A DNA stretch of 48,083 bases. Source: Candidatus Omnitrophota bacterium (lineage in GTDB: Bacteria > Omnitrophota > Gorgyraeia > Gygaellales > Profunditerraquicolaceae). The notes beneath the pieces are model-generated. The model saw only the letters and a list, made by a program, of their open reading frames with translations. It made no database searches and had not been told where the DNA came from. Where the stretch lies: the NCBI GenBank assembly GCA_028715415.1, contig JAQURX010000014.1:1-48083 (forward strand), written 5' to 3'. This document shows, in pieces, positions 1-38,690 of this stretch. Made by a program: the position numbers and the translations under genes. Numbering within the stretch: position 1 is the stretch's first letter; the number at the start of each line of letters is the position of its first letter.

Positions 1-1787
1 CTACGGTAAACGGGGCGATTCTTTTCCATGAGCGATTCGTGGGGAATCCTTTGGTATATTGCGGCACAGTTGGGATTATGCCTGAGGATAAATCTTTTAA
101 AGAGACGAAAGAAGGCGATTTGATTGTTGTTGTAGGCGGCAGGACAGGCAGGGACGGAATACACGGCGCAACATTTTCTTCCGGTGAGCTTACCCATGAA
201 TCAGAGACGGTTTCAAGTGGGGCAGTGCAGATTGGAAACCCCATTCAGGAAAAAAAGATGGCTGATACCATTTTGCAGGCGCGCGATAAGAATTTATATA
301 ATGCAATCACAGATTGCGGGGCAGGAGGATTATCAAGCGCGGTTGGAGAGATGGGCGCTGAATTAGGAGCAAGGGTTGACTTGGAAAAAATCCCGAAAAA
401 ATATTCCGGCCTCTCTTATATGGAAATCTGGATCTCCGAATCCCAAGAGAGGATGGTTTTAGCAGCGCCGAAAGATAAAATTAATGAGTTAATTGAACTT
501 TTTGATAAAGAGAATGTGGAAGCAACCGTAATCGGAGAGTTTGTAAAAACCGGAAAGCTTGAACTTTATTATGAAGGAAACCTTGTATGCAATCTGCATA
601 TGGATTTCCTGCATGAGGGCATCCCTAAAACAGAGAAGAAAGCAGTTTATATCCCCCAAAAACACAAAGAACCGAAAAATTCCTGCAAGAAAGATTTAAC
701 TGAATATCTTTTTAAATTACTTTCTCATTATGATACTTGTTCTAAAGAATGGGTTATAAGGCAGTATGATCATGAGGTGCAGGGTGGGTCTATTTTAAAA
801 CCACTTAGCGGCATTGCAAATGACGGCCCGTCTGATGCAGCGGTGGTAAAGCCGCTTTTGGACAGCCCAAAGGGCCTCATTATATCAAACGGAATTAATT
901 TTCGTTTTGGGTTGATTGACCCTTATTGGATGGCAGCTTCTTGTATTGATGAGGCTTTGCGCCAGATAATTGCAAGCGGTGGCTCATTGGAGAAGATAGC
1001 GATTTTAGATAATTTCTGTTGGGGAAATCCTGATAAGCCGGATAGGCTGGGTAGTTTAGTAAGAGCAGCATATGGCTGTTATGATATGTCAAAAGGCTTT
1101 GGAGTTCCTTTTATTTCCGGAAAGGACAGCCTTTATAATGAATACACAGTAAATAAAAAGTCTCTTTCCATCCCCGGGACTCTTTTAATCTCTGCAATCG
1201 GAGTTATGGATGATGTAGGGAAAACCGTTTCAATGTATGCAAAAGAAGAGGAAGATTTATTATATATTGTTGGAGAGACCTTTGATGAACTCGGAGGCTC
1301 TCATTATTATGATATTTTAGGCGCAATTGGCAATAATGTTCCGAAAGTTAATTTGAAAAAAGCAAAAGCAATTTTTGATAGCCTTAGCAAAGCTTCTTCT
1401 TTAGGGTTTATCCGTGCTATGCATGATTGTTCTGACGGTGGGCTTGCGGTAGCTTGTGCAGAAATGGCTTTTTCCGGCGCCTTGGGGATGGATGTATTTT
1501 TGAAGGAAGTTCCGTTTCAGAAGTCACAAGGTCACAAGGTCACAAGGTCACAAGTTAATCGCAATGATACGGTATTGTTCTCAGAATCTAATTCAAGGTT
1601 TATTGTTGAGGTGAGTAAAGAGAAACAAAAAGAATTTGAACAAACCTTGAAAGGAATTCCTTTCGGATTAATCGGCTGCGTTAATAAAAATAATAATTTT
1701 AATGTTTATGGCATAGATGGCGAGATTTGTATAAAATCCGATATTAAGAAATTAAAAGAAGCGTGGCAGAAGCCGTTACGTTGGTAA
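1..1787 (+). CDS. purL: Phosphoribosylformylglycinamidine synthase (PurL), 5'-truncated by window edge
   Basis: This is the synthetase subunit that makes formylglycinamidine ribonucleotide (FGAM) from FGAR, ATP and glutamine-derived ammonia in purine synthesis. The reading frame is open from base 3, so the N-terminus lies outside the window and about 594 residues remain. Conserved PurL blocks are visible: the GGRTGRDGIHGATFSS segment near the start, the ITDCGAGGLSSAVGEMGAELGA segment, the FISGKDSL block and the MHDCSDGGLAVACAEMAF block near the C-terminus. There is no fused glutaminase domain, and a separate purQ lies downstream. One oddity is four tandem copies of the 8-mer GTCACAAG at 1523-1554, which encode a short Gln/Lys/Arg-rich insert just before the conserved NRNDTVLFSES block. 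The gene ends 25 bp before the LOG-family gene and is clearly operonic with it. Confidence 0.95.
   Translation, partial: TVNGAILFHERFVGNPLVYCGTVGIMPEDKSFKETKEGDLIVVVGGRTGRDGIHGATFSSGELTHESETVSSGAVQIGNPIQEKKMADTILQARDKNLYNAITDCGAGGLSSAVGEMGAELGARVDLEKIPKKYSGLSYMEIWISESQERMVLAAPKDKINELIELFDKENVEATVIGEFVKTGKLELYYEGNLVCNLHMDFLHEGIPKTEKKAVYIPQKHKEPKNSCKKDLTEYLFKLLSHYDTCSKEWVIRQYDHEVQGGSILKPLSGIANDGPSDAAVVKPLLDSPKGLIISNGINFRFGLIDPYWMAASCIDEALRQIIASGGSLEKIAILDNFCWGNPDKPDRLGSLVRAAYGCYDMSKGFGVPFISGKDSLYNEYTVNKKSLSIPGTLLISAIGVMDDVGKTVSMYAKEEEDLLYIVGETFDELGGSHYYDILGAIGNNVPKVNLKKAKAIFDSLSKASSLGFIRAMHDCSDGGLAVACAEMAFSGALGMDVFLKEVPFQKSQGHKVTRSQVNRNDTVLFSESNSRFIVEVSKEKQKEFEQTLKGIPFGLIGCVNKNNNFNVYGIDGEICIKSDIKKLKEAWQKPLRW
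1523..1554 (+). repeat. 8-bp x4 tandem repeat inside purL
   Basis: Four perfect head-to-tail copies of GTCACAAG lie within the purL reading frame. The unit length is not a multiple of three, so gain or loss of one unit would shift the frame upstream of the conserved C-terminal part. In its present state the frame is intact. Similar 7-bp repeats occur inside purQ and purD. Confidence 0.95.
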
Positions 1788-1812
1788 TAAAAGAGAAAAA
1801 ACAGGAGAGAGG

Positions 1813-2472
1813 ATGAGTAAAGCCAAAAAGATTAATCAGGTTGAGGATAATTTTACTAAAGATGATACTTGGAGAGTGTTTAAGATTATGTCGGAATTTG
1901 TCGAGGGTTTTGAGGTTCTTTCTTCTGTGGGCAAGGCTGTTTCAATCTTCGGCGGCAGCAGAATTAAGCACCACGATAAATATTACAAGTTAGCTCAGGA
2001 TACAGCTTATCTTTTGGCTAAAGAAGGCTATGCGATTATTACAGGAAGCGGCCCAGGGATTATGGAGGCAGGTAACAAAGGAGCAAAGCTTGCCAAGGGT
2101 AAGTCTATCGGATTAAATATCCAGATACCTACCGAGCAAAAGCCAAACAAATACGTAGATACATTATTAGATTATCATTATTTCTTTGTGCGCAAGGTTA
2201 TGTTTGTAAAATATGCCAAGGCGTTTGTGATTATGCCCGGAGGATATGGGACATTGGATGAATTATTTGAGTCGTTAAATTTAATCCAGACCGGCCGCAT
2301 TGGGAAATTTCCGGTTATCCTGATGGGTAAGGAATATTGGAAAGGAATGCTTGAGTGGATGCATGGCACTCTTTTAAAGCACGGCGCAATAATAAAAGAA
2401 GATTTGGGGATTTTTAAAGTAACGGATAATCCGAAGGAAGTTGTGCAGATAATTAAAAAGTTCTATTCATAA
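1813..2472 (+). CDS. LOG-family nucleotide phosphoribohydrolase-like protein
   Basis: This 219-residue Rossmann-fold protein belongs to the LOG ('lysine decarboxylase-like', YgdH/YvdD) family, whose characterised members hydrolyse the N-glycosidic bond of nucleoside 5'-monophosphates. The family signature PGGYGTLDELFE is present at about residues 142-153, and the nucleotide-binding loop ITGSGPGIMEAGNKGA at about 76-91. The start at 1813 follows a GGAGAGAGG-type ribosome site. It sits between purL and purQ with gaps of 25 and 5 bp, so it is co-transcribed with purine synthesis genes. A role in purine nucleotide salvage or housecleaning is a reasonable inference, but the substrate cannot be read from the sequence. 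Confidence 0.88.
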   Translation: MSKAKKINQVEDNFTKDDTWRVFKIMSEFVEGFEVLSSVGKAVSIFGGSRIKHHDKYYKLAQDTAYLLAKEGYAIITGSGPGIMEAGNKGAKLAKGKSIGLNIQIPTEQKPNKYVDTLLDYHYFFVRKVMFVKYAKAFVIMPGGYGTLDELFESLNLIQTGRIGKFPVILMGKEYWKGMLEWMHGTLLKHGAIIKEDLGIFKVTDNPKEVVQIIKKFYS

Positions 2473-2477
2473 AAATT

Positions 2478-3260
2478 ATGTCAACACCAAAAGTTTGCGT
2501 ATTAAGGACTGCAGGGACAAATTGCGATAAGGAAACTGCTTTTGCTTTTCAAAAGGCAGGAGCGGAAACGGAATTGGTGCATGTAAATTATCTTATATCA
2601 AAAGAAAAAAATCTTTCGGATTACCAGATTCTGGCTTTGCCCGGAGGGTTTAGTTATGGCGATGACATTGCTTCGGGAAAAGTCTTGGCAAATGAACTAA
2701 GGACAAAATTATCGGAACCTTTAAAGAAATTTATCCAAGACGGAAAACTGATTATTGGAATTTGTAATGGTTTTCAGGTTTTGGTTAAAAGCGGGTTTTT
2801 GCCCGGGAATGATGAATTAAAACAAGATACAAGTTTAATCATTAATGATTCGGGTAAATTTGAAGACCGTTGGGTATATTTAAGGGCACAAGACACAAGG
2901 CACAAGTGTGTATGGGCAAAAAATATACCGGAGGTAATTTATCTTCCGGTTGCTCATGGAGAAGGAAAGTTTGTTACAAAAGATAAGGCGGTTTTAGAAA
3001 AATTAAAGAATAACGGGCAGGTGGTTTTCCAATATTGTAATGAAAAAGGAAATTTTTCAGGATATCCTGAAAACCCCAATGGTTCGGTAGATAATATCTC
3101 CGGAATTTGTGATGAAACAGGAAGAATCTTAGGGCTTATGCCGCATCCAGAAAGGCACATTGATTCTAAACAGCATCCGAGATGGACGGCAGTAAAAGCG
3201 AATAAAGAGGCAGATGGGTTACAGATTTTTAGAAATGGTGTTGAATATTTTAAAACTTAA
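2478..3260 (+). CDS. purQ: FGAM synthase glutaminase subunit PurQ
   Basis: This is a class I glutamine amidotransferase of 260 residues that supplies ammonia to PurL. The nucleophile elbow GICNGFQVL carries the catalytic Cys, and the His-Glu pair appears as MPHPERH near the C-terminus. The oxyanion region (LPGGFSYGDDIASGKVLANEL) and VAHGEGKF are also typical. The start ATG at 2478 lies 5 bp after the LOG gene and has no strong Shine-Dalgarno sequence. A 7-bp x3 GCACAAG-like repeat at 2886-2906 encodes a basic insert (RAQDTRHK). It falls between the glutaminase core and the HGEGKF motif, so it probably sits in a surface loop. Confidence 0.95.
   Translation: MSTPKVCVLRTAGTNCDKETAFAFQKAGAETELVHVNYLISKEKNLSDYQILALPGGFSYGDDIASGKVLANELRTKLSEPLKKFIQDGKLIIGICNGFQVLVKSGFLPGNDELKQDTSLIINDSGKFEDRWVYLRAQDTRHKCVWAKNIPEVIYLPVAHGEGKFVTKDKAVLEKLKNNGQVVFQYCNEKGNFSGYPENPNGSVDNISGICDETGRILGLMPHPERHIDSKQHPRWTAVKANKEADGLQIFRNGVEYFKT
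2886..2906 (+). repeat. 7-bp x3 imperfect tandem repeat inside purQ
   Basis: The units are GCACAAG, ACACAAG and GCACAAG, together 21 bp and therefore frame-neutral (7 codons). It resembles the CACAAG core of the repeat in purL and is related in spacing to that in purD. Confidence 0.85.
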
Positions 3261-3269
3261 GGAGCCAAA

Positions 3270-4676
3270 ATGAGCGGCATCTTTGGAGTTGTTTCTAAGG
3301 GAAATTGTATGGAAGATTTGTTTTACGGGACTGATTACCACTCGCATTTAGGTTCCCAATTCGCAGGGCTTGCTGTAATGGGAGATGAATTAGTGCGTAA
3401 GATTCATGATATAAGAGGGAGCCAGTTTAAGGCAAAGTTTTTTGAAGATTATCTAAAAATGTCTGGCAATAAAGGGATAGGCGTAATAAGCGCGAAAGAT
3501 GAACAGCCGATTGTAATAAATTCTAAATTCGGCCCTTTCGCGATTATTACAAATGGATATATTGATAACGCGCGTGAGTTGACAGATGAGTTATTTAAGC
3601 AAGGTAAATCTTTTAGTGAGGTTACCGACGGCGGAGTAAATCAGACAGAATTAGTTGCTAAGCTTATTATCTGTGGAAAAGATATTGTTGGCGGCATAGA
3701 ACTTATGTTTTCAAAAATTAAAGGAGCCTGTTCTTTGCTTTTGTTGAACAAAGACGGAATTTATATCGCCCGTGACAAGTGCGGGAATACTCCTTTGGTA
3801 ATCGGCCAGTATAAAGATGCCTGGGCAGTTACTTCCGAGACATCGGCTTTTAGTAATTTAGGTTTTGAGATAAAAAAATACGTCGGCCCGGGTGAAATAA
3901 TTTTTCTGGATGAGTCTGGGATGAAGACTGAGAAGAAAAGCAATAAGTGTAGTCAAATTTGTTCATTCTTGTGGATTTATACCGGATTTCCCGCTTCTTC
4001 TTATGAGGGGATAAATGTAGAAGTGGTTAGGGAAAGATGCGGAAAGTGCCTGGCAAAAGGGGATAATGTAAAAGTTGATATTGTCGCCGGCATTCCGGAT
4101 TCAGGAACAACTCATGCGATTGGTTATTCTATGGAATCAAGAGTTCCTTATAGAAGGCCGTTAGTTAAATATACTCCGGGTTTTGACCGCAGCTATATCC
4201 CTGCGTCTCAAGAAAGGCGCGATTTGGTTGCCAGGATGAAATTGTTGCCGGTTGCTGATATTATTAAAGATAAGAAAATTGTTTTTTGTGATGATTCAAT
4301 AGTAAGAGGGACGCAGCTAAAGAATTACACAATTCAAAAGCTAAAAGAATGCGGGATAAAAGAAATACATTTCAGGATTGCCTGCCCTCCTTTAATGTTC
4401 CCCTGCAAGTTTAATTTTTCAACCCGTACTTTAAATGAATTGGCAGCCCGTCGGGCGATAAAGGCAATTGAAGGGAAGGAATTAAATGATCCTAGCCCGT
4501 ATTTAGATGAGAAATCAGCAAAACACAAGAAGATGGTGGATTGGATTGCCAATGATATGGGAGTTACCACTTTAAAATACCAGAAATTGGATGATATGGT
4601 TAATGCAATTGGCCTGCCTAAGAAAGATTTGTGCCTATATTGCTGGACCGGCAAAGAGCCAAGCGAAAGAGAGTAG
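3270..4676 (+). CDS. PurF paralogue with Ser in place of the N-terminal catalytic Cys
   Basis: This 468-residue protein has the whole two-domain plan of glutamine PRPP amidotransferase: an Ntn-type glutaminase domain (about 1-230) and a phosphoribosyltransferase domain with the PRPP loop VFCDDSIVRGTQ (about residues 351-362). The usual N-terminal Cys nucleophile is replaced: the protein begins MSGIFGV, so Ser would be residue 1 after Met removal. Cysteines matching the Fe-S ligands of Bacillus-type PurF appear retained (QICSF, MFPCKF and the CLYC pair at the C-terminus). A Shine-Dalgarno AAGGAG precedes the ATG. It lies 3 bp upstream of a canonical purF. It may be a regulatory partner, an ammonia-dependent enzyme or a Ser-type Ntn hydrolase; the sequence does not decide between these. 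Confidence 0.88.
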   Translation: MSGIFGVVSKGNCMEDLFYGTDYHSHLGSQFAGLAVMGDELVRKIHDIRGSQFKAKFFEDYLKMSGNKGIGVISAKDEQPIVINSKFGPFAIITNGYIDNARELTDELFKQGKSFSEVTDGGVNQTELVAKLIICGKDIVGGIELMFSKIKGACSLLLLNKDGIYIARDKCGNTPLVIGQYKDAWAVTSETSAFSNLGFEIKKYVGPGEIIFLDESGMKTEKKSNKCSQICSFLWIYTGFPASSYEGINVEVVRERCGKCLAKGDNVKVDIVAGIPDSGTTHAIGYSMESRVPYRRPLVKYTPGFDRSYIPASQERRDLVARMKLLPVADIIKDKKIVFCDDSIVRGTQLKNYTIQKLKECGIKEIHFRIACPPLMFPCKFNFSTRTLNELAARRAIKAIEGKELNDPSPYLDEKSAKHKKMVDWIANDMGVTTLKYQKLDDMVNAIGLPKKDLCLYCWTGKEPSERE

Positions 4677-28164: not shown

Positions 28165-28743
28165 ATGAGAAATTATTTAAAGATCGTGATTTTCTTAGTG
28201 GTTTGTTTATTTAGTTTTGGTTTTAGTTCTTGCGATAAAGATAAAGAAGGCTTGGTTTATGATTCCGAAAAAGGTAAATTTACCATGCAGCTGGGGGAAG
28301 ATTATAACTACTCTGATATTCTTGTGACAAGAGTTGTAGATGGAGATACTTTGGTGCTTGCAAACGGAGAGCGGGTGCGGTTAATCGGCATTGATACTCC
28401 TGAAATACATGAATCAAAGAAATTATATAAAGATGCCCAGCGTTCAGAACAAGATGCTTCAACAATAAAGAAATTAGGGATGCGCTCATTTGAATTTACA
28501 AAAAATCTAGTTGAAGGCAAGCGCGTAAGCCTTGAATTTGATGTTGAAAGGCATGACCGGTATAAGCGCTTGTTAGCATATGTATATTTAAAGGATAGTA
28601 ATGTTTTTGTTAACGCGGAGATTGTCAAAGAAGGCTATGCTTCTTTAATGACTTATCCTCCGAATGTGAAATACGCGGATTTGTTTGTGAAATTATACCA
28701 GGAAGCGCGGGAAAACCGAAGAGGGCTTTGGGGAGGGCGTTAG
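28165..28743 (+). CDS. Thermonuclease (SNase-like) lipoprotein
   Basis: This 192-residue protein has an N-terminal lipoprotein signal peptide with lipobox FSSC (Cys about 22), so it is membrane-anchored outside the cytoplasm. The staphylococcal nuclease fold follows (about 48-192). All catalytic features are visible: VVDGDT, RLIGIDTPEIH with the Arg, Asp and Glu, and RHDRYKRLLAYV with the second Arg. It should cleave DNA or RNA with calcium. ATG 28165 has the strong AAAAGGAG site; an upstream in-frame TTG would destroy the signal peptide. Its end overlaps the ribosome site of the following MshEN-PilZ-TpsB gene. Confidence 0.92.
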   Translation: MRNYLKIVIFLVVCLFSFGFSSCDKDKEGLVYDSEKGKFTMQLGEDYNYSDILVTRVVDGDTLVLANGERVRLIGIDTPEIHESKKLYKDAQRSEQDASTIKKLGMRSFEFTKNLVEGKRVSLEFDVERHDRYKRLLAYVYLKDSNVFVNAEIVKEGYASLMTYPPNVKYADLFVKLYQEARENRRGLWGGR

Positions 28744-28745
28744 AA

Positions 28746-31373
28746 GTGGGGTTTCGAAGAATATCAACAAAGATGATTGGAGAATTGTTGCTTGAACGGC
28801 ACGCTATCACGCCTCAACAGCTTGATAAAGCACTTCAATTCCAGAAAGAGAATGGCGGGTATTTGAGCCAGAGCCTTATTTCATTGGGTTTTACTAAAGA
28901 GGAAGATATTGCGAATTGTTTGGCAGTCCAATATGATTTTGCGTATATAGAATTAGACAATTATAGCATACCAGATGAAGTCTTAAAAAGTATCCCTCTT
29001 CAATTTATAAATATTTATTCTCTCTTGCCGGTTTATAAGAAGATGAATTGCCTAACTGTGGTAATGGCAGACCCTTTGAACGATGGTGTAATTGATATGC
29101 TTAAACAGATTACAAAATGTGAAATTATTGCCGCTATTTCTACTTATAGCCAGATAAGGCGCTCAATCAATAAATATTTTGGTGAGGAGCTAAATAAGAT
29201 TGTTTCTAAGGTGGATGGAATTGATCTATTAAAAGAGAATATCGCTGATTCTTATGTACAGGTAAAAGGTTATGAGGGAAGAGGACGCAGGAAGTTTAAG
29301 AGGTTAGATGTTGATTTGGATATGGCATATTTCCTAGGAAAAAATATGTTTTCCGCTAAAATAAAGAATATTGGTTTAGGGGGATTGGCTTTTGTAGGAG
29401 ATTTGTATCTTCCGATTGACCAAACTCTTTATACTACAATAGCTTGCAAGCTTGCTTTAAAAAAGCTAATTATCAATACAGTAGTGCAGATAGTAAGGCT
29501 AGAGAAGATCCGCGAGGTTGAAATGGTTGATTCATGTGAGATTACCCGCTGGAAGTATAAATTCGCAGGGTTTTTTAGTTTTATAGCTGATGATGAAAAA
29601 CAAAAACTCGCTACTTTCTTAAAAGAGAATATAAAAAACAATAATCAGAAATTGATTAGGCTTTTTTTGATTTTTTTCTTATTCCTTTTTTCTGTATCTC
29701 CGGCATTATTTGCACAAACTCCTCCTCCCGGCCAGGATGTTGGAGCACAAGGTGAACGTTTTAAATCAGATATCCAGCTGCAAAAAGAAAGAGTTGAGAG
29801 AAAAGAAACCAAGGCTCCAAAAATAGAAATTGAAGAACCAAAAGTAGAGAAGCCGACTGTAAGCGAAGCTGTTTCTTTTGAATTAAAAGATGTGGTAATT
29901 ACCGGAGCTACAATATTTAAGCCGGAAGATTTCCGCCCCATTTATCAGCAATTCATAAATAAAAAAGTTAATTTTAAAGATATAGAATTTATCATTGAAA
30001 AAATAAAAGCAAAGTATAAGAAAGAAGGTTATCTTACTACTACAGTTTATCTTCCTGAGCAGGATATAAAAGAAGGCAGGATTGAAATAAGGGTTGCAGA
30101 AGGAAGAATGGGGCACTTAACCATTGAAGGGAACAAATGGTTTTCTTCTGAATTAATAGAAAAATATTTTCACGTAAAAAAAAATGAAATTCTAAATATT
30201 AATAAGCTTCAAAGGGACGCCTTAAGGTTAAACCGAAATTCGGATCTGGAAGTTAAGACAATAATTTCACCCGGGAAAGAGGCTCTCGCCTCAGATATAA
30301 CTCTTAAAATAAAAGATAAATTCCCCTGGCATTTTGGAATTAGTTCTGATAACCAGGGAACGCGTTTAACGGGAAAATATAGAGGGTTATTTTCCTTGCG
30401 CAGTACAAATGTTTCAGGGGCAGGGGATTCCTTATATTGGAGCAATCTTTTTAATTCGCGGACATTTGGCGAGTCGTTTAGTTATAATCATCCAATTGGC
30501 ACTTATGGCACAAAATTCGGTATTGATTTTACATACTTTGATATGAAGTTATGGAAAGAATATAAATCTTTTGACATAACAGGCAACTCTCAGATTTATA
30601 CTCCCCATATTAACTGGGAACTTGCTTTAAAAGATAATTTCGAATCTTATCTTAACTTAGGTATGGATTTTAAGAGTATTAAAAAGCACACGCTGGGAGT
30701 AATTACTGCCAGCGACCAATTACGTACACCTTTTTTTGGTTTTAATTTCTCTAAGACAGATGCTTTTGGAGGAGGAGGGCAAACTAGTTTTAATCCGAAA
30801 TTTAATTTTAGCACAAGTAGTTTCTTGGGAGCATCCCATAGAAATCATCCTACTTCAAGCCGTGCCGGGACAGGCGGGTTCTTTTTTAAATATGAGCAAA
30901 GCATAAGCCGTATTCAAAAGCTGCCATTCGGAAGTTATTGCTTGTTACGTTCACAGTTTCAGATCCCCAGCCATACATTGCCATCTGTAGAGCAATTTCA
31001 GTTAGGTGGCGCTAATTCTGTGCGCGGTTATCCGGAAGGTGATTATCTGGCGGATATCGGAGGCAATTTAAATTTTGATTGGGTTTTTCCAAATTATTTA
31101 ATTCCTAAAGATTGGAAATTGAAGTATTCCGATCTGCCCTTACAGCGCCAGATTGAACCTGTGGTTTTTATTGACATGGGAGGCGGCCAGCTAAAAAAAG
31201 TTATCCCGGGAGAAAAATATAAGAGGTTCTTAGTTGGCGTGGGGGGAGGTTTAAGGATTCATCTTTTAAACACTTTATTTGCTAGGCTTGAATGGGCTAG
31301 GCGCATTGGTGACCGGCCAACTTCCAGCTCCGGGCCATCTACATTCCACTTAACCTTCCAGTCAGAGTTCTAG
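28746..31373 (+). CDS. MshEN-PilZ-TpsB fusion: two-partner secretion transporter with N-terminal c-di-GMP-receptor-family domains
   Basis: This protein has 875 residues from GTG 28746, which has GGGAGG nine bases upstream; a second candidate is ATG 28773. Residues about 9-147 form an MshEN (GspE N-terminal) domain with an IGELLLERHAITPQQLDKAL motif; its canonical Arg/Gly residues are partly lost. Residues about 175-295 form a PilZ domain with RKFKR (182-186) and NIGLGG (208-213), the two c-di-GMP motifs. Then a hydrophobic segment (about 303-323, RLFLIFFLFLFSVSPALFAQ) looks like a signal peptide. After a Lys/Glu-rich linker come ShlB-type POTRA domains (from about 375, KDVVITGATIFKPEDF and RMGHLTIEGNKWF) and a TpsB barrel with the VRGYPEGDYLADI motif and a terminal Phe. 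The TpsA-like partner is directly downstream. An internal TTG at 29652 could start a separate TpsB, but no ribosome site is evident. Confidence 0.88.
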   Translation: MGFRRISTKMIGELLLERHAITPQQLDKALQFQKENGGYLSQSLISLGFTKEEDIANCLAVQYDFAYIELDNYSIPDEVLKSIPLQFINIYSLLPVYKKMNCLTVVMADPLNDGVIDMLKQITKCEIIAAISTYSQIRRSINKYFGEELNKIVSKVDGIDLLKENIADSYVQVKGYEGRGRRKFKRLDVDLDMAYFLGKNMFSAKIKNIGLGGLAFVGDLYLPIDQTLYTTIACKLALKKLIINTVVQIVRLEKIREVEMVDSCEITRWKYKFAGFFSFIADDEKQKLATFLKENIKNNNQKLIRLFLIFFLFLFSVSPALFAQTPPPGQDVGAQGERFKSDIQLQKERVERKETKAPKIEIEEPKVEKPTVSEAVSFELKDVVITGATIFKPEDFRPIYQQFINKKVNFKDIEFIIEKIKAKYKKEGYLTTTVYLPEQDIKEGRIEIRVAEGRMGHLTIEGNKWFSSELIEKYFHVKKNEILNINKLQRDALRLNRNSDLEVKTIISPGKEALASDITLKIKDKFPWHFGISSDNQGTRLTGKYRGLFSLRSTNVSGAGDSLYWSNLFNSRTFGESFSYNHPIGTYGTKFGIDFTYFDMKLWKEYKSFDITGNSQIYTPHINWELALKDNFESYLNLGMDFKSIKKHTLGVITASDQLRTPFFGFNFSKTDAFGGGGQTSFNPKFNFSTSSFLGASHRNHPTSSRAGTGGFFFKYEQSISRIQKLPFGSYCLLRSQFQIPSHTLPSVEQFQLGGANSVRGYPEGDYLADIGGNLNFDWVFPNYLIPKDWKLKYSDLPLQRQIEPVVFIDMGGGQLKKVIPGEKYKRFLVGVGGGLRIHLLNTLFARLEWARRIGDRPTSSSGPSTFHLTFQSEF

Positions 31374-31408: not shown

Positions 31409-31454
31409 TTTATTATAGTAACATACGTTCTTTCAATATGTTAAGTTGATTTTG

Positions 31455-31546
31455 AAAAAGGCAAACTATCTGAAAAGATAGGGCGCAAAGCTATTAGGAT
31501 CTAATTCTAGCGGGGTTCCGTAGAGATGATTGCCAGCTGCCGAAAT
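31455..31546 (+). ncRNA. Cyclic-di-GMP-I (GEMM-I) riboswitch aptamer
   Basis: The core elements appear in order. GGCAAAC at 31460-31466 is followed by a small hairpin CTATC-TGAAAA-GATAG with a GAAA-type loop, then GGGCGCAAAGC (31480-31490), where the consensus is GGACGCAAAGCC. A second arm follows (GGATCTAAT ... GATGATTGCC) with the CTAA/AUG tetraloop-receptor pattern and an apical stem TCTAGCGG-GGTT-CCGTAGA. CTGCC (31537-31541) closes the outer helix with GGCA. This is the GEMM-I layout of two side-by-side helices. A terminator follows and the ORF after it is a giant adhesin, both usual for this class. Confidence 0.85.
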
Positions 31547-31649: not shown

Positions 31650-34600
31650 TTGATTCCTAAGCATTTAAGAATATTTAGCGCAAAATGGGTCTATAGAGAA
31701 ATGAAAAAAAATTTAACCATAATTATATTGATTTTTGTGATAATACATTTTGTTTCTCTCCCGCTTTTTGCACTCCCTGAAGGCCAAGTTGTGGAATCAG
31801 GGAGTGTTGTCTTTGATCAGCCCAATGCCACAACCCTAAACATTACCGCAAGCGATAAATCAATCATCAATTTTAATACTTTTAATATTGGCCAAAACGA
31901 AACAGTAAATTTTTACCAGCCGAATTCTTCTTCAACAGTTTTAGGTAGAGTTTTAGGGGCAGGCGCCAGCAATATTAACGGCTCACTTACCGCAAACGGG
32001 ATTCTTTTTTTAACCAACCCAAACGGATTTAATTTTGGCCCTCAGGCAAATGTGCAGGTTAATTCATTAATTGCCTCAACGCTTGAAATATCAACAAATA
32101 ATTTTATCAATGGAAATTATATTTTCAACCACAGAGAAAACGCTGCTTATGCCCGTATAATCAATGAAGGAATTATTGAAGGAAATAATATCGCACTTGT
32201 AGCAAGCGCTGTTAAGAATACCGGAGTAATCCTTGCTAAAGCTGGCACTGCTCATTTAGCATCAGGAGACAAAACAACCATTACAATTGATAATCGCGGT
32301 TTGATCCAGGTTGAGATTAATGAAAAGACAAGCGGCAAGGTTTATGATTCCAATGGTGTTGCTTTAAAGGATGCAGTAGCAAACTCAGGAACGGTTGAAG
32401 GTGCACAGGTATATATGAGCGCAAAAACCGCCAGTGATATTTTTGAGAACGCAGTTAACCAAACTGGTATTATAAAAGCAAATGGCCTTGTTAATGAGAA
32501 TGGCATAATAAGAATAGTTTCCAATGAAAAGATTAAACTTTCTGGAAGCCTTACTGCAGATAAAGGAGAGATAAAAGTATCTTCCGAAAAATTTGTTAAC
32601 GTTAGCGCTGAATTAAATATTTCCGCGGCTACTGCTGAAATAAATTCAGATAAAGATTTATTGGTTGATGCTAATATAACTAATGATTCGGGAGATTTGC
32701 ATTTATTTGCGGATTATGATGGGGATGGTGTAGGAGAATTTACGCAGTCAACCGGGGAAATTTATGCTAAAGATTCTGGCGATGTTTATATTGATGGCTC
32801 TGGGGTAATGACCTTAAATAAAATTAAAACAGATTTAGGCGCAATTAAGATAGGAACTCTTAGAGCTCCGAGTAGTATTTCCGGTAAGCCGCATTATATC
32901 CATACAGTAGGAGATTTTGAATTTGACTCAAGCAGTGATGGAGCGATTACTACGACAAGAGGAGATGTTTTAAGGTTTAATCCTTTAGGCTCTCTAGTTA
33001 TTGAGGCAATAAATGGGGCAATAAAGTTCCTTGAAGGTGTAGTAATCAATGTTGCCCAAGCGGAATTTATTGGAAACAGCCTTTTTGTTAACACTATTTC
33101 TTCTTCAGTTACCTTCTATAAGAATATCGGAGATTTTAATATTACAAGCTTTAGTACTACCGATGATTTAGCGACCTTAGAAGGAGAAGATGTTAAGGTA
33201 ACCTATCTAAAGAGCAATGATGTTACATTAAAATCAGATAATTCAGTTAATTCAACCCCCGGAGTTATTATTCAAGCTCCAGAGGTAAGAGTTATTGCTC
33301 AAAAATTCGGCTCAATTGAAACACCTCTTAATATTAAATCTCCTTTAATTTACTTAGAGAGATTACATGGCGCAATTGAAATTTTGGAAAGTTCAGGCAT
33401 TGGGACAAGTGTCATGTTAAGAGGCCCCCCGGATGGCTTTGGCGCAATTATATATAACCACGATACAAATCTCACCCTTAAAGCCGAAGTAGTCCGCCTA
33501 ATTGGAACGGATTCTATCCAGTTATACGGGAATATTACTTTCTCTAGTCTTGAATGTACCATTCCAAATAAAGAAATCTATTTTGAAGCAGGGAAAACTT
33601 ATACCATTACTGGAGTTTTTCATTTTAGTGGCAAGCTGGAAGATGACGGCACTATATCTTACATACACCTCAAGTCTTCAGAAGATGGCGTCAGGTGGTT
33701 TATAGACCCACAAGGTGCCCATGAGCTTTCATATGTAAGAGCTGAAGATTCCTATAACCTTGATCCAAGGCTTATTTTAGGTACATCCCTTGACCACGAT
33801 GCTAATAGCTACAACTGGGATGCTCCTCGTTATTGGTTAGGAACAACTTCTACCTCATGGAATAATACTCTTAATTGGTCTGCTACTGATGGAGGAGCTG
33901 GTGGTGCAGGCGTGCCTACCAGTGCCGATGATGTGTATTTTTCTTCCACCAGAAATAACGCATGTTCAATTGACACTACTGCTGTTTGCTTGTCGTTTAC
34001 CATTGGAGACTTATACACCCAGACGGTATCAATGGCAGCTGGATCATCGCTTGCTGTAACAAACGATCTTACCTTAACTGGTTCTGGAGCACTTTCTCCT
34101 GCAGGGCGTCCGATAAGCGTTGGCGGTAATTGGACTGTAGGGGCAAATGGCGTCTTTACACGCGGTACCAGCACAGTGACTTTTAACGGCACAAACGCTG
34201 TTAATCCGCAGCAGATTAATTCAGGTGGCACTACTGCAGCAACTAAAACCTTCTATAATATTATCATTAATAATACCGGTGCAGGAGTAAAGCTTGTTAC
34301 GAATAGTCTTACTCAGTCTACCGGAGGCACCCTTACTATGACCGCAGGTACACTTGATTTAAACGCTCTTACTTGGACATTAGGAGCCGACCTTTCAGTT
34401 ACAGCCGGGACCATCGCCATAGGGACAGGCTATTTAGACTGTGCTAGTTATGATTTAACCGTAGGAACAGGAGGCACTGTTACTATCGGCACAACAGGTA
34501 CCTTGAGAGTTACGGATTTTAGTGTTACAAATACTGGGATTTTTACCTGTACAGGCAATGCTACTCTTAATATACTTGGCAATGTTGTTATTACAAGCTC

Positions 34601-37562
34601 CGGTTGGTCGGCGGGGAATTCTACTATATATATGAAATCAACAACACAAACTATCAATGCTTCCCAGGCAATATATAATTTACATGTTAATTGTAACGAT
34701 AGAAGTTCTAATTCTTTAACCATTGTTACTAACGATTTAATTTGTAATGGCGATCTACTCTTTGAGGATGAGGATGCCAATACTTATATTGATACAAATT
34801 CCAAGAATTTGACTGTTTATGGCACGATTACCTTGAATTGGGATGGTATTATACGCCTTAACGCGGCAAGCGCGCCTTCTACTCTTACTATAGGTAATGA
34901 TATGGTCTTTATTTCTGTGCATGGCACTCCTCATGTCCAACTATACAACAGCACAAATACTATTTCTATAGTTGGATACGGCGGCTTAAGAACAATACCC
35001 GAGACTATTACAGGCCTTGATAATAATAAGCAGGTAACTTTGAATAATATAAGTTTAACTACCGCCCAGACTCTAACTGGTTCTTCAGCTATAACATTAG
35101 CTGGTAGCGCTACGTTAGCAGGGATAACCTTAAACGGTGCTACTGCCACATTGAATGTCGGCGCACAAACCTTAACCATGACCGGAAATCTTCTTGTCAC
35201 AACTGGCATAGTAACCATCACAAGCGGCGGATCTATTGCTTTAGGATCTAATAGCTTTACTAATTCAGGCGGCACAGGAGTTACTTCAGCAGGTACAATT
35301 ACTTGCGGTGCTTTTACTTCTTCAGGCACATTTGCAAATAATGCGGGTAGTGCTATTAATGCTTCAGGTAATGTCGCTATATCAGGCACATTCTCTACTC
35401 CTGCCAATAACACCTTAACTATGACCGGAGCAGGAACAACGCTTAATGCTTCAGTAGGTATTGGAAATTTACAGATTAATAACGGAGCAAGCGTTTCGAT
35501 ATCTACCAATAACTTATCAATAGGCGGCACATTAGTAATAGGCCAGGGTACAGGCGGCACAAGCTGTTCGTTGGATACTAACTCAAAGAATCTTACAGTT
35601 GTAGGTACTACCACAGTAAATAGCGAAGGAGTATTAATACTTACTGCAGGGGCCGCTACTTCGACAATGACATTTACGGGCGATTTTACTAATTCGGGTA
35701 TAGTTAGGGTAGTTGATGTTAGTAATGCTAGAACATCTTTAGTAGGAGCAACTGGCGCGTTAAGGAATTTCTCTGGTAATGGCCTTACTTTTAATAGCAG
35801 GATTATTAATTTGAATAATATTAAATATAATCCGGCATTTACTCCTGCTTCAAGCGAAGGGGCAATTTTAACTGGTAATTGCACATTTGCTTCTGTAATT
35901 ACTCTTAATGGAGGTTCTGTAAATACAGGCAGTTATACCTTAACTGTTCAGAATACAATTACAATTAATTCTGGCACTATTCTTACTTCTGGAGGAATAA
36001 TCGATGCCGGAACAAACACTTTTTCTTTGCTAGGGGGAACAGTCCAATCAGGTGGCACAATTATTTGCGGTGACTTTATATCTAGTGGCGGAAATTATGT
36101 TAATAACTCTGGGTCTATTATTAATTCAAGTGGTAGTGTTACGATTACCGGTACATTTACTACTCCGACTAATAACACTTTAACTATGACAGGTGCTGGT
36201 AAAACAATTAATGCTTCGGCCGGTATTGGTAATTTAATTATTAACTCAAGCGGTACAGTTAGTGTCTCTACTAACGCTTTAAGTGTGGGTGGTAATTTAA
36301 CTATTCAAGCAGGTATTTTTGATTCTGGCGGTTTGGCAATTAATGTAACGGGTAATTGGAATAATAGCGGAGGCACCTTTACACATAGTAATAATACTGT
36401 TACTCTTAACGGTACCGCCCTGCAGACCGTTACCTCAAACGGCTCAAGTTTTAATATTCTAACCATCACTAACACCTCAACTGTCGGCGTTGCATTTGCT
36501 GATAGATTGCAGGTAGCAACATTAAATGCAACAGCCGGAGTTAAGAAATTAAGTTTTGCCGCAGCTTCTTCTGCAAGCCCGCATACAATAAGCACGACAT
36601 TTAATATTGCAGGGTCCGCAGGAAATCTTTTAACCCTGGCTCCTTCAGCAAGCAATACTACTTGGTATATAGATGCGCCTACAAGTTCTGTCAGTTACGT
36701 AAGTGTTAGTTATTCTTCTGAAGCTTCAGGTAAACTTTTAACTGCAACAAATTCTACAGACGCAGGGAATAACGCTAATTGGATATTCCCGGGATATCTT
36801 AAAATTACCGGCACAGGCACAATGACAGCAGGGGGCTCTCAGATAATTACGATTACTGCTTATGATGGAAATGGCAATATCTCTACTTCATATTCCGGAG
36901 ATAAGAATCTAATCTTCTCAGGTGCCAATAGTTCACCTAGCCCTGTTACAAGCCCGACTGCAACAAACAAGAGCAGCTCTGATACAAATTTTGGCTCAAC
37001 AACAGTTGTAACATTTGCTAATGGAGTTGGTTCTTCAACTGTAAAATTATACAAGGCGGAAACTGCTTCTCTTGCTGTAACCGATGGAGTAATCAGCACA
37101 AGCCAGGATGCATATAAGCTAAGTGTTGTTGTTTCAGTAGGGGTAAAGAATCAATTAGTTTGGGCAACTCAGCCAACTCAGTCAGTTACCAGCGGTACAA
37201 CCTTACCGGCATTTTCTATAGAAATTACTGATAGCTATGGCAATAGAACAACGGATAGTGATAATATTGCAATTACTGCGAGTTCTGGCTTATTAAATGG
37301 CTCAACTATGAAGTCCGCAGTAAATGGCTTAGCGACTTTTAATAATGTATCCGTGTTTACAGCGGGTAATATTACTTTAAAAGGCACAGCATCCGGGCTT
37401 ACTTCTACTGCTTCTTCTAATCTGGTAACTGTTAATGGATCAGGCTCTGAATCACAAGGAGAGAGTGTTTTGTTTAGAGGTAGTTCCATAATGCCTCAGC
37501 CAATAATAGAATATATTGCGCCTCTTTCTTTTATTTATAACTATATATATGGCTACAAATAG
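31650..37562 (+). CDS. TpsA-like giant exoprotein/adhesin with TPS (haemagglutination activity) domain
   Basis: This protein has 1970 residues from TTG 31650, which has AGAAGGG ten bases upstream; ATG 31701 is an alternative start giving a conventional signal peptide (MKKNLTIIILIFVIIHFVSL). Cleavage is expected after LFA at about residue 41. Residues about 42-330 form the TPS domain recognised by TpsB, with GRVLG and the diagnostic NPNG (123-126). The rest is low-cysteine, Thr/Ser/Gly/Asn-rich repeats expected to form a beta-helix: WLGTTSTSWNNTLNW at about 730, then many GNLTI/GTLTM-type strands, including two long repeats. The last about 260 residues look like Ig-like invasin domains (FSIEITDSYGNRTTDSDNIAI). 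The end (YIAPLSFIYNYIYGYK) is hydrophobic-aromatic. It is the export partner of the upstream fusion protein and lies under riboswitch control. Confidence 0.9.
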   Translation: MIPKHLRIFSAKWVYREMKKNLTIIILIFVIIHFVSLPLFALPEGQVVESGSVVFDQPNATTLNITASDKSIINFNTFNIGQNETVNFYQPNSSSTVLGRVLGAGASNINGSLTANGILFLTNPNGFNFGPQANVQVNSLIASTLEISTNNFINGNYIFNHRENAAYARIINEGIIEGNNIALVASAVKNTGVILAKAGTAHLASGDKTTITIDNRGLIQVEINEKTSGKVYDSNGVALKDAVANSGTVEGAQVYMSAKTASDIFENAVNQTGIIKANGLVNENGIIRIVSNEKIKLSGSLTADKGEIKVSSEKFVNVSAELNISAATAEINSDKDLLVDANITNDSGDLHLFADYDGDGVGEFTQSTGEIYAKDSGDVYIDGSGVMTLNKIKTDLGAIKIGTLRAPSSISGKPHYIHTVGDFEFDSSSDGAITTTRGDVLRFNPLGSLVIEAINGAIKFLEGVVINVAQAEFIGNSLFVNTISSSVTFYKNIGDFNITSFSTTDDLATLEGEDVKVTYLKSNDVTLKSDNSVNSTPGVIIQAPEVRVIAQKFGSIETPLNIKSPLIYLERLHGAIEILESSGIGTSVMLRGPPDGFGAIIYNHDTNLTLKAEVVRLIGTDSIQLYGNITFSSLECTIPNKEIYFEAGKTYTITGVFHFSGKLEDDGTISYIHLKSSEDGVRWFIDPQGAHELSYVRAEDSYNLDPRLILGTSLDHDANSYNWDAPRYWLGTTSTSWNNTLNWSATDGGAGGAGVPTSADDVYFSSTRNNACSIDTTAVCLSFTIGDLYTQTVSMAAGSSLAVTNDLTLTGSGALSPAGRPISVGGNWTVGANGVFTRGTSTVTFNGTNAVNPQQINSGGTTAATKTFYNIIINNTGAGVKLVTNSLTQSTGGTLTMTAGTLDLNALTWTLGADLSVTAGTIAIGTGYLDCASYDLTVGTGGTVTIGTTGTLRVTDFSVTNTGIFTCTGNATLNILGNVVITSSGWSAGNSTIYMKSTTQTINASQAIYNLHVNCNDRSSNSLTIVTNDLICNGDLLFEDEDANTYIDTNSKNLTVYGTITLNWDGIIRLNAASAPSTLTIGNDMVFISVHGTPHVQLYNSTNTISIVGYGGLRTIPETITGLDNNKQVTLNNISLTTAQTLTGSSAITLAGSATLAGITLNGATATLNVGAQTLTMTGNLLVTTGIVTITSGGSIALGSNSFTNSGGTGVTSAGTITCGAFTSSGTFANNAGSAINASGNVAISGTFSTPANNTLTMTGAGTTLNASVGIGNLQINNGASVSISTNNLSIGGTLVIGQGTGGTSCSLDTNSKNLTVVGTTTVNSEGVLILTAGAATSTMTFTGDFTNSGIVRVVDVSNARTSLVGATGALRNFSGNGLTFNSRIINLNNIKYNPAFTPASSEGAILTGNCTFASVITLNGGSVNTGSYTLTVQNTITINSGTILTSGGIIDAGTNTFSLLGGTVQSGGTIICGDFISSGGNYVNNSGSIINSSGSVTITGTFTTPTNNTLTMTGAGKTINASAGIGNLIINSSGTVSVSTNALSVGGNLTIQAGIFDSGGLAINVTGNWNNSGGTFTHSNNTVTLNGTALQTVTSNGSSFNILTITNTSTVGVAFADRLQVATLNATAGVKKLSFAAASSASPHTISTTFNIAGSAGNLLTLAPSASNTTWYIDAPTSSVSYVSVSYSSEASGKLLTATNSTDAGNNANWIFPGYLKITGTGTMTAGGSQIITITAYDGNGNISTSYSGDKNLIFSGANSSPSPVTSPTATNKSSSDTNFGSTTVVTFANGVGSSTVKLYKAETASLAVTDGVISTSQDAYKLSVVVSVGVKNQLVWATQPTQSVTSGTTLPAFSIEITDSYGNRTTDSDNIAITASSGLLNGSTMKSAVNGLATFNNVSVFTAGNITLKGTASGLTSTASSNLVTVNGSGSESQGESVLFRGSSIMPQPIIEYIAPLSFIYNYIYGYK
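35285..35540 (+). repeat. Adhesin internal long repeat, copy 1
   Basis: About 256 bp encoding a block starting SAGTITCGAFTSSGTF and including LTMTGAGTTLNASVGIGNL. It corresponds closely in length and protein sequence to copy 2 at 36048-36305, with many synonymous differences. Confidence 0.88.
36048..36305 (+). repeat. Adhesin internal long repeat, copy 2
   Basis: About 258 bp encoding SGGTIICGDFISSGGNY and LTMTGAGKTINASAGIGNL, the counterpart of copy 1. The spacing of about 760 bp between copies suggests an ancient segmental duplication followed by divergence. Confidence 0.88.
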
Positions 37563-37649: not shown

Positions 37650-38690
37650 ATGTTAAAATATTCAACCGCAGGTGAATCACACGGGAAGGCTCTTCTTGCG
37701 ATTTTAGAAAATATTCCGGCAGGGCTTAAGCTGGATATAGGTAAGGTAAATTATGAATTAAGGCGTAGGCAACAGGGCTATGGCCGTGGAAAACGTATGC
37801 AGATTGAAAAAGATGCAGCGCAGTTGATTTCTGGTGTCAGACATGGAAAAACTTTGGGAAGTCCAATTGGCCTATGTATCGAGAATAGAGATTTTAGTAT
37901 AGAAAAATTACCTGATGTTGCTTGTCCTCGTCCGGGACATGCAGATTTAGCCGGAGTTTTAAAATACGGCTTTAAAGATGTGCGTAATGTTTTAGAGCGT
38001 GCTTCAGCGAGGGAGACTGCAGCAAGGGTTGCAGTAGGAGCAGTCTGCAAAATATTATTAGCTGAGTTTAAAATTGATATTTCTAGTAATGTTATGTTGA
38101 TTGGCGGAGAATGTTCTCCGCAGTCAATGATGAAACAGATAATGAAAGCACAGGAAAATAAAGATACTGTAGGCGGAATATTTGAAGTTACGGCAGATGG
38201 AGTCCCTGCGGGGTTAGGTAGCTATACTTCAGCGGATAAACGTTTGGACGGAAGATTGGCTCAAAACATAATCTCAATTCCCGGGATTAAAGCAATTGGT
38301 TTTGGGTTAGGGTTTGGTTTTGCGCATCGTTTTGGTTCGCAATGCCATGATGCGATCTATTACTCTAAAAATAGCGGATATTCGCGCAAAACAAATAATG
38401 CCGGCGGTATTGAAGGCGGGATTTCTAACGGAGAAGAGATTGTTTTACACGCTTGCATGAAACCGATTGCAACTTTACTTAAGCCTTTAGATTCGGTTAA
38501 TATAAATTCAAAAAAGAAAGCTAAAGCAACGGTTGAGCGTTCTGATATTTGTGCAGTTGAATCAGCTGCAGTTATCGCGGAATCCGGCATGGCGTTTGTC
38601 TTAGCGGATGCTTTGTTGGAGAAGTTTGGCGCGGATAATATAGACGATATAAAGAAAGCTTATAAAGATTACTTAAAAAGAATACGATAA
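37650..38690 (+). CDS. aroC: Chorismate synthase
   Basis: This is the last enzyme of the shikimate pathway, converting EPSP to chorismate with reduced FMN. It has 346 residues from ATG 37650, which follows a GGAGG site; an in-frame TTG at 37638 overlaps that site. Signature sequences are YSTAGESHGKALLAILEN at the N-terminus, RRRQQGYGRGKRMQIEKD, RPGHADLAG and ERASARETAARVAVGAV. The C-terminal DICAVESAAVIAESGMAFVLAD is also typical. aroK lies nearby, with spoVG between them. Confidence 0.97.
   Translation: MLKYSTAGESHGKALLAILENIPAGLKLDIGKVNYELRRRQQGYGRGKRMQIEKDAAQLISGVRHGKTLGSPIGLCIENRDFSIEKLPDVACPRPGHADLAGVLKYGFKDVRNVLERASARETAARVAVGAVCKILLAEFKIDISSNVMLIGGECSPQSMMKQIMKAQENKDTVGGIFEVTADGVPAGLGSYTSADKRLDGRLAQNIISIPGIKAIGFGLGFGFAHRFGSQCHDAIYYSKNSGYSRKTNNAGGIEGGISNGEEIVLHACMKPIATLLKPLDSVNINSKKKAKATVERSDICAVESAAVIAESGMAFVLADALLEKFGADNIDDIKKAYKDYLKRIR

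What the first reader, a model, noticed from the sequence alone, without database searches (positions are those of the whole stretch)
28746..31373. Outer-membrane TpsB transporter fused in frame to MshEN and PilZ domains
One uninterrupted frame encodes two domains of c-di-GMP-receptor families (MshEN about 9-147, PilZ about 175-295), then a signal-peptide-like segment, POTRA domains and a TpsB barrel. MshEN is known from type II secretion and pilus ATPases and PilZ from cytoplasmic effectors; I know of no TPS transporter carrying either. The topology is unusual: the sensors would be cytoplasmic and the barrel in the outer membrane, so either the chain spans the envelope or it is cleaved at ALFA-Q into a sensor-signal-peptide piece and a barrel. 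The PilZ motifs RKFKR and NIGLGG are intact, while the MshEN Arg/Gly contacts are partly degenerate, so PilZ is the more likely ligand site. A TpsB whose export is gated by c-di-GMP would be new.
Basis: partly seen in the sequence, partly recalled or inferred. Interest (0 to 1): 0.93.

Follow-up and report, generated by a model that had tools for sequence, protein, structure and literature searches.

The report
Private sensor–TpsB gene fusion, Omnitrophota
In one uncultured Omnitrophota genome, a conserved c-di-GMP-receptor-like gene and the neighbouring gene for an outer-membrane secretion channel have run together into one reading frame; all 24 relatives with the sensor gene keep it separate, so this is probably a local accident, while the clearer c-di-GMP control is a riboswitch in front of the secreted protein.

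Summary
The open frame is real: 875 codons, MshEN, PilZ, signal peptide, POTRA and ShlB/FhaC barrel, no stop. It is not a recurring architecture. In 24 other Omnitrophota genomes the MshEN-PilZ protein is a separate gene, often ending FLKENIK-stop, exactly where the window runs on into TpsB. In 49 named loci TpsB is separate, with its own signal peptide. The sensor gene belongs to an ancestral neighbourhood (nuclease, mshEN-pilZ, aroC, aroK); in the window a tpsB-[riboswitch]-tpsA cassette sits between mshEN-pilZ and aroC, and the stop codon is missing at the seam. One base more or fewer in the A6 run there would separate the genes. In another family an unrelated gene (uracil-DNA glycosylase) is joined in frame to a TpsB. 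MshEN contacts are degenerate and the PilZ Ser is lost. The likeliest reading is a polyprotein-like precursor cut at ALFA|Q, or two coupled proteins, giving an ordinary TpsB. Gating of the barrel by the attached sensors is not supported. A c-di-GMP-I riboswitch (72.9 bits) lies between tpsB and tpsA, as at six further loci, and is the better-supported link between c-di-GMP and this secretion system.

The parts
28746..29636 (+). MshEN-PilZ moiety (residues 1-297), orthologue of a stand-alone gene; ends FLKENIK as in relatives
29286..29636 (+). PilZ part; RxxxR kept (RKFKR), Ser of the (D/N)xSxxG motif lost (NIGLGG)
29633..29638 (+). A6 run at the seam (in-frame A AAA AAC); one A more gives ENIKKQ-stop, one A fewer gives ENIKTIIRN-stop with TGA overlapping TTG 29652
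29652..29714 (+). TpsB signal peptide LIRLFLIFFLFLFSVSPALFA, predicted cleavage before Q324 (29715); TTG at 29652 is the only usual start codon near the expected TpsB N-terminus that keeps a full signal peptide, and it has no Shine-Dalgarno match
29877..30104 (+). POTRA_2 domain of TpsB
30291..31256 (+). ShlB/FhaC barrel (PF03865), the only one found in this genome
31450..31544 (+). c-di-GMP-I riboswitch aptamer RF01051, 72.9 bits
31584..31632 (+). hairpin followed by a U run, possible terminator of the riboswitch expression platform (folding only; the consensus scan found no terminator)
31701..37562 (+). TpsA exoprotein with TPS secretion domain PF05860 (5.7e-24)
28165..28743 (+). SNase-family nuclease, conserved upstream neighbour of mshEN-pilZ
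37650..38690 (+). aroC, directly downstream of mshEN-pilZ in relatives, here behind the tps cassette

Best explanation
A tpsB-[c-di-GMP-I riboswitch]-tpsA two-partner secretion cassette lies directly behind the conserved stand-alone gene mshEN-pilZ, separating it from aroC. In this lineage alone the stop codon at the seam is missing and tpsB has no ATG of its own, so the two genes share one frame (shown). Inferred: the product is a polyprotein-like precursor. The TpsB signal peptide works as an internal signal in its normal N-in, C-out orientation and signal peptidase cuts at ALFA|Q. This frees an ordinary TpsB for the outer membrane and leaves the MshEN-PilZ piece in the cytosol on a signal-peptide tail. 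If the real sequence or the ribosome shifts by one base at the A6 run, two separate coupled proteins are made, with the same outcome. The sensors do not gate the barrel. c-di-GMP acts on this system through the riboswitch ahead of tpsA (polarity unknown).
For: Halves separate in all 24 other genomes with MshEN-PilZ, and TpsB separate in 49 named Omnitrophota loci. The seam falls on the old C-terminus FLKENIK and the TpsB signal peptide. Ancestral synteny nuclease-mshEN-pilZ-aroC-aroK in G057, G006 and G082, with partial views in G026 and G077. G009 has nuclease-tpsB-tpsA at the same locus without mshEN-pilZ, so TpsB there needs no attached sensor. An unrelated gene, UDG, is fused in frame to TpsB in another family. 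Sensor motifs are weakened. Riboswitch between tpsB and tpsA, also in L079, L094, L097, L098, L112, L118. The genome carries 8 GGDEF and 16 PilZ matches.
Against: No other genome of the same genus is held, so the fusion could be fixed and selected in this genus. The sensor half is not a pseudogene: 297 codons, conserved fold, end branch 0.63 against 0.39 and 0.54 for the two nearest single rows of the tree. No good separate TpsB start is visible, so the fused chain may be the only source of TpsB. Cleavage of a signal peptide 300 residues into a chain is inferred, not shown.
Confidence: 0.7

Rival explanations
1. The fusion is a genuine c-di-GMP-gated TpsB: the uncleaved chain spans the envelope, and ligand binding in the cytosol changes export through the barrel.
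For: Both receptor folds are present; the sensor half is still constrained; c-di-GMP signalling is abundant in the genome. About 55 residues between the hydrophobic segment and POTRA could in principle reach far across the periplasm (inference). TPS export elsewhere is c-di-GMP dependent, and for ExlA the signal path is unknown (PMC8472254).
Against: No relative has it; cleavable-looking signal peptide at the seam; both ligand motifs degenerate; the sensor is the native neighbour of the locus.
Confidence: 0.07
2. The single frame is a sequencing or assembly error, or an unfixed indel, in the A6 run at 29633-29638; in life two genes are translated separately, with coupling.
For: One A more or fewer closes the sensor frame within a few codons; with one fewer, TGA overlaps TTG 29652. 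G009 has the nuclease TGA overlapping the tpsB ATG. In UDG-TpsB a shifted frame also ends in an ATGA overlap next to an A run.
Against: About 14.9 kb of conserved genes in this window align to relatives without any frameshift, so indel errors are rare here; stops in the other frames are expected by chance in AT-rich DNA; no Shine-Dalgarno before TTG 29652.
Confidence: 0.2
3. The A AAA AAC heptamer is a programmed -1 frameshift site that makes both a free sensor (ENIKKQ-stop) and a fused TpsB.
For: The heptamer lies in the right frame at the seam; only 4 occur in 12,960 codons of this window.
Against: ATAAAA is shared with the relatives' ENIK-stop end, AACATAAAATAA, so most of the heptamer needs no explanation; no stimulating structure was sought.
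Confidence: 0.03

Closest known systems
TpsB transporters (FhaC/ShlB, Omp85 superfamily) with TpsA partner
   Same: Signal peptide, POTRA_2, ShlB barrel, adjacent tpsA with TPS domain
   Different: 297 residues of a cytosolic-type protein precede the signal peptide in the same frame
Stand-alone MshEN-PilZ proteins of Omnitrophota (nuclease-mshEN-pilZ-aroC locus)
   Same: Orthologous by position and 37-53% identical to members in the same family
   Different: Stop lost; PilZ Ser lost; joined to TpsB
CdrA-CdrB and ExlA-ExlB of Pseudomonas (c-di-GMP-controlled TPS, PMC8472254)
   Same: TPS export or expression tied to c-di-GMP
   Different: There by cdrA promoter activation and LapG-dependent release (CdrA) or an unknown route (ExlA); here a c-di-GMP-I riboswitch ahead of tpsA
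Bradyrhizobium FbcH precursor (cytochrome b and c1 in one frame, cut by signal peptidase; from memory, not tested; two searches found no paper)
   Same: Internal signal peptide in a fused bacterial gene product
   Different: There the fusion is established; here it is private to one genome and processing is unproven

Membership tests
TpsB (two-partner secretion transporter) | POTRA_2 and ShlB/FhaC barrel | tested here: met
   PF08479 7.2e-19, PF03865 1.4e-20
TpsB (two-partner secretion transporter) | Adjacent TpsA with TPS secretion domain | tested here: met
   PF05860 5.7e-24 in the ORF at 31650-37562
TpsB (two-partner secretion transporter) | N-terminal cleavable signal peptide | tested here: inconclusive
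   A signal peptide aligned with those of relatives is present but internal (residue 303); cleavage not testable here
MshEN c-di-GMP receptor | MshEN fold | tested here: met
   PF05157 4.8e-14; model matches 5htl, E 8.5e-10
MshEN c-di-GMP receptor | Two RLGxx(L/V/I)(L/V/I)xxG...LxxxLxxQ motifs (PMC5013675) | tested here: not met
   Arg replaced by Met and Tyr, second-motif Gly by Ser; Gln and most hydrophobics kept
PilZ c-di-GMP receptor | PilZ fold | tested here: met
   Model matches 5y6g E 4.3e-6; HMM 20.4 and 24.9 bits against a cut-off of 22.5
PilZ c-di-GMP receptor | RxxxR and (D/N)xSxxG | tested here: inconclusive
   RKFKR met; NIGLGG lacks the Ser that nearly all relatives keep
c-di-GMP-I riboswitch | Aptamer match to RF01051 | tested here: met
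   72.9 bits against a gathering score of 35, whole model 1-87
   0 of 24 other MshEN-PilZ genomes; 0 of 49 named TpsB loci

The most novel reading that the evidence does not exclude
A fixed natural fusion in which a cytosolic c-di-GMP receptor is tethered through an uncleaved signal anchor to an outer-membrane TpsB and controls export from the cytosol, alongside riboswitch control of its TpsA by the same messenger.
Probability: 0.07. Interest if true: 0.9.

Novelty: new variant of a known kind. Interest (0 to 1): 0.4.

Why it matters
It shows how a striking domain fusion in a metagenome-type genome can come from two neighbouring genes meeting at one seam. It also turns up a testable regulatory link: c-di-GMP-I riboswitches between tpsB and tpsA at several Omnitrophota loci. 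I found no held paper on riboswitch control of two-partner secretion in this phylum. If the precursor is really made and cut, it would be an example of bacterial signal peptidase processing a polyprotein.

Tried and rejected
The first genome-contig scan with the fused protein found no relatives; the second, with a TpsB alignment, gave 49 loci. A joint alignment of fused and separate proteins was misaligned and was not used. A regular-expression search for the riboswitch missed real ones and was replaced by Rfam; the last six loci (L121-L126) were not scanned with Rfam. G056 looked like a possible exception (open frame 499) but is a GGDEF / MshEN / pilB-type operon. Long open frames before TpsB in L084 and L112 were judged not to be fusions (tRNA gene inside; GC-rich chance frame). 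A Shine-Dalgarno argument is weak because several well-placed genes here also lack one. Neither the TpsB nor the MshEN-PilZ tree places the window firmly.

Full report
Observation. The frame 28746-31373 (+) is open over 875 codons. Pfam finds MshEN, a borderline PilZ, POTRA_2 and ShlB in that order. An AlphaFold model of residues 1-297 (mean pLDDT 74.6) matches MshE and PilZ structures. Two details change: the second PilZ motif has lost the Ser that nearly all relatives keep (NIGLGG), and the MshEN Arg contacts are Met and Tyr.

Setting. The window is a contig of a 1.85 Mb genome in 39 contigs, 97% complete. The named relatives of its TpsB are nearly all Candidatus Omnitrophota. No other genome of its genus is held. 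The genome has 8 GGDEF matches, 16 PilZ matches (the fused one scores lowest) and 5 c-di-GMP-I riboswitches.

Relatives of each half. Among 117 relatives, the listed matches to the fused protein cover either the sensor half or the TpsB half (from about residue 290-300 on), never both. Searching the first half alone in phylum, class and family samples gave 24 other genomes with a full-length MshEN-PilZ protein, all in their own frame of about 285-356 codons. Several end FLKENIK followed at once by a stop, where the window continues NNNQKLIRLFL. TpsB in 49 named loci starts with its own signal peptide where the start is covered.

Locus history. In G057 and G006 (same family) and G082 (another family) the order is nuclease, mshEN-pilZ, aroC, aroK, with a DUF3786 gene and a helicase upstream in G057 and G006; G026 and G077 show parts of it. 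The window keeps helicase, DUF3786, nuclease, mshEN-pilZ, and then tpsB, riboswitch and tpsA before aroC and aroK. G009 has helicase, DUF3786, nuclease, tpsB, tpsA at the same place and no mshEN-pilZ there. The simplest history, an inference, is that a tps cassette entered next to mshEN-pilZ; here the stop was lost, in G009 the sensor gene was lost. The TpsB tree does not resolve whether G009 and the window share one insertion.

The seam. It reads GAG AAT ATA AAA AAC AAT AAT CAG AAA TTG. One A more gives ENIKKQ-stop, one fewer gives ENIKTIIRN-stop with TGA overlapping TTG 29652. An indel error is therefore a serious rival. About 14.9 kb of conserved genes here align to relatives without frameshifts, which makes a random error unlikely but does not exclude one at an A run. 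G095, in another family, has a uracil-DNA glycosylase in one frame with a TpsB. That shows a TpsB can run together with whatever gene lies upstream, so the domain content of the upstream half need not be meaningful.

State of the sensor half. It is not a pseudogene, but it departs alone from 10 of 60 otherwise invariant columns, against 0-7 of 50-57 in the ten relatives (Fisher p 0.009 pooled, a rough test because columns and rows are not independent).

Mechanism. Shown: one frame, internal signal peptide, ordinary TpsB and TpsA, riboswitch. Inferred: cleavage at ALFA|Q, or separate translation, gives an ordinary transporter. The sensor piece stays in the cytosol and its binding of c-di-GMP is doubtful. 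The riboswitch (31450-31544, 72.9 bits) lies between tpsB and tpsA; it is followed by a hairpin and U run that the consensus scan did not call a terminator, so its polarity is open. Rfam finds c-di-GMP-I-type aptamers after tpsB and before tpsA also in L079, L094, L097, L098, L112 and L118. In L079 and L097 other ORFs also lie between the two genes. Such riboswitches are common in this phylum (111 of 117 relatives), and I did not test whether the tps gaps are enriched beyond that background.

Comparison. c-di-GMP control of TPS is known in Pseudomonas through other routes (PMC8472254). I found no held paper that joins c-di-GMP or two-partner secretion with Omnitrophota, and four papers that mention riboswitch, c-di-GMP and two-partner secretion together, judged by title and abstract only. 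The library is limited.

Verdict. A real, private gene fusion of modest interest. The proposed gating is unlikely; the riboswitch-tps link deserves follow-up.

Noticed in passing
L017 (G095:C5), minus strand, open frame about 1465-3795: Uracil-DNA glycosylase (PF03167) and a TpsB in one uninterrupted frame; the TpsB ATG is kept.
   Followed up: partly
window 31450-31544; L079 6212-6308; L094 6850-6932; L098 6748-6825; L097 7630-7712; L112 6193-6271; L118 6854-6952: c-di-GMP-I-type riboswitches between tpsB and tpsA at seven Omnitrophota loci.
   Followed up: partly
117 relatives of the window genome: c-di-GMP-I riboswitches in 111 of 117 genomes, up to 17 in one.
   Followed up: no
L031 (G109:C27): TpsB with a C-terminal extension that looks like TPR repeats; other open frames of about 700 codons may be alike.
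   Followed up: no
L041 / L087 (G009:C111): tps cassette at the same locus as in the window but without mshEN-pilZ; nuclease stop overlaps the tpsB start.
   Followed up: partly
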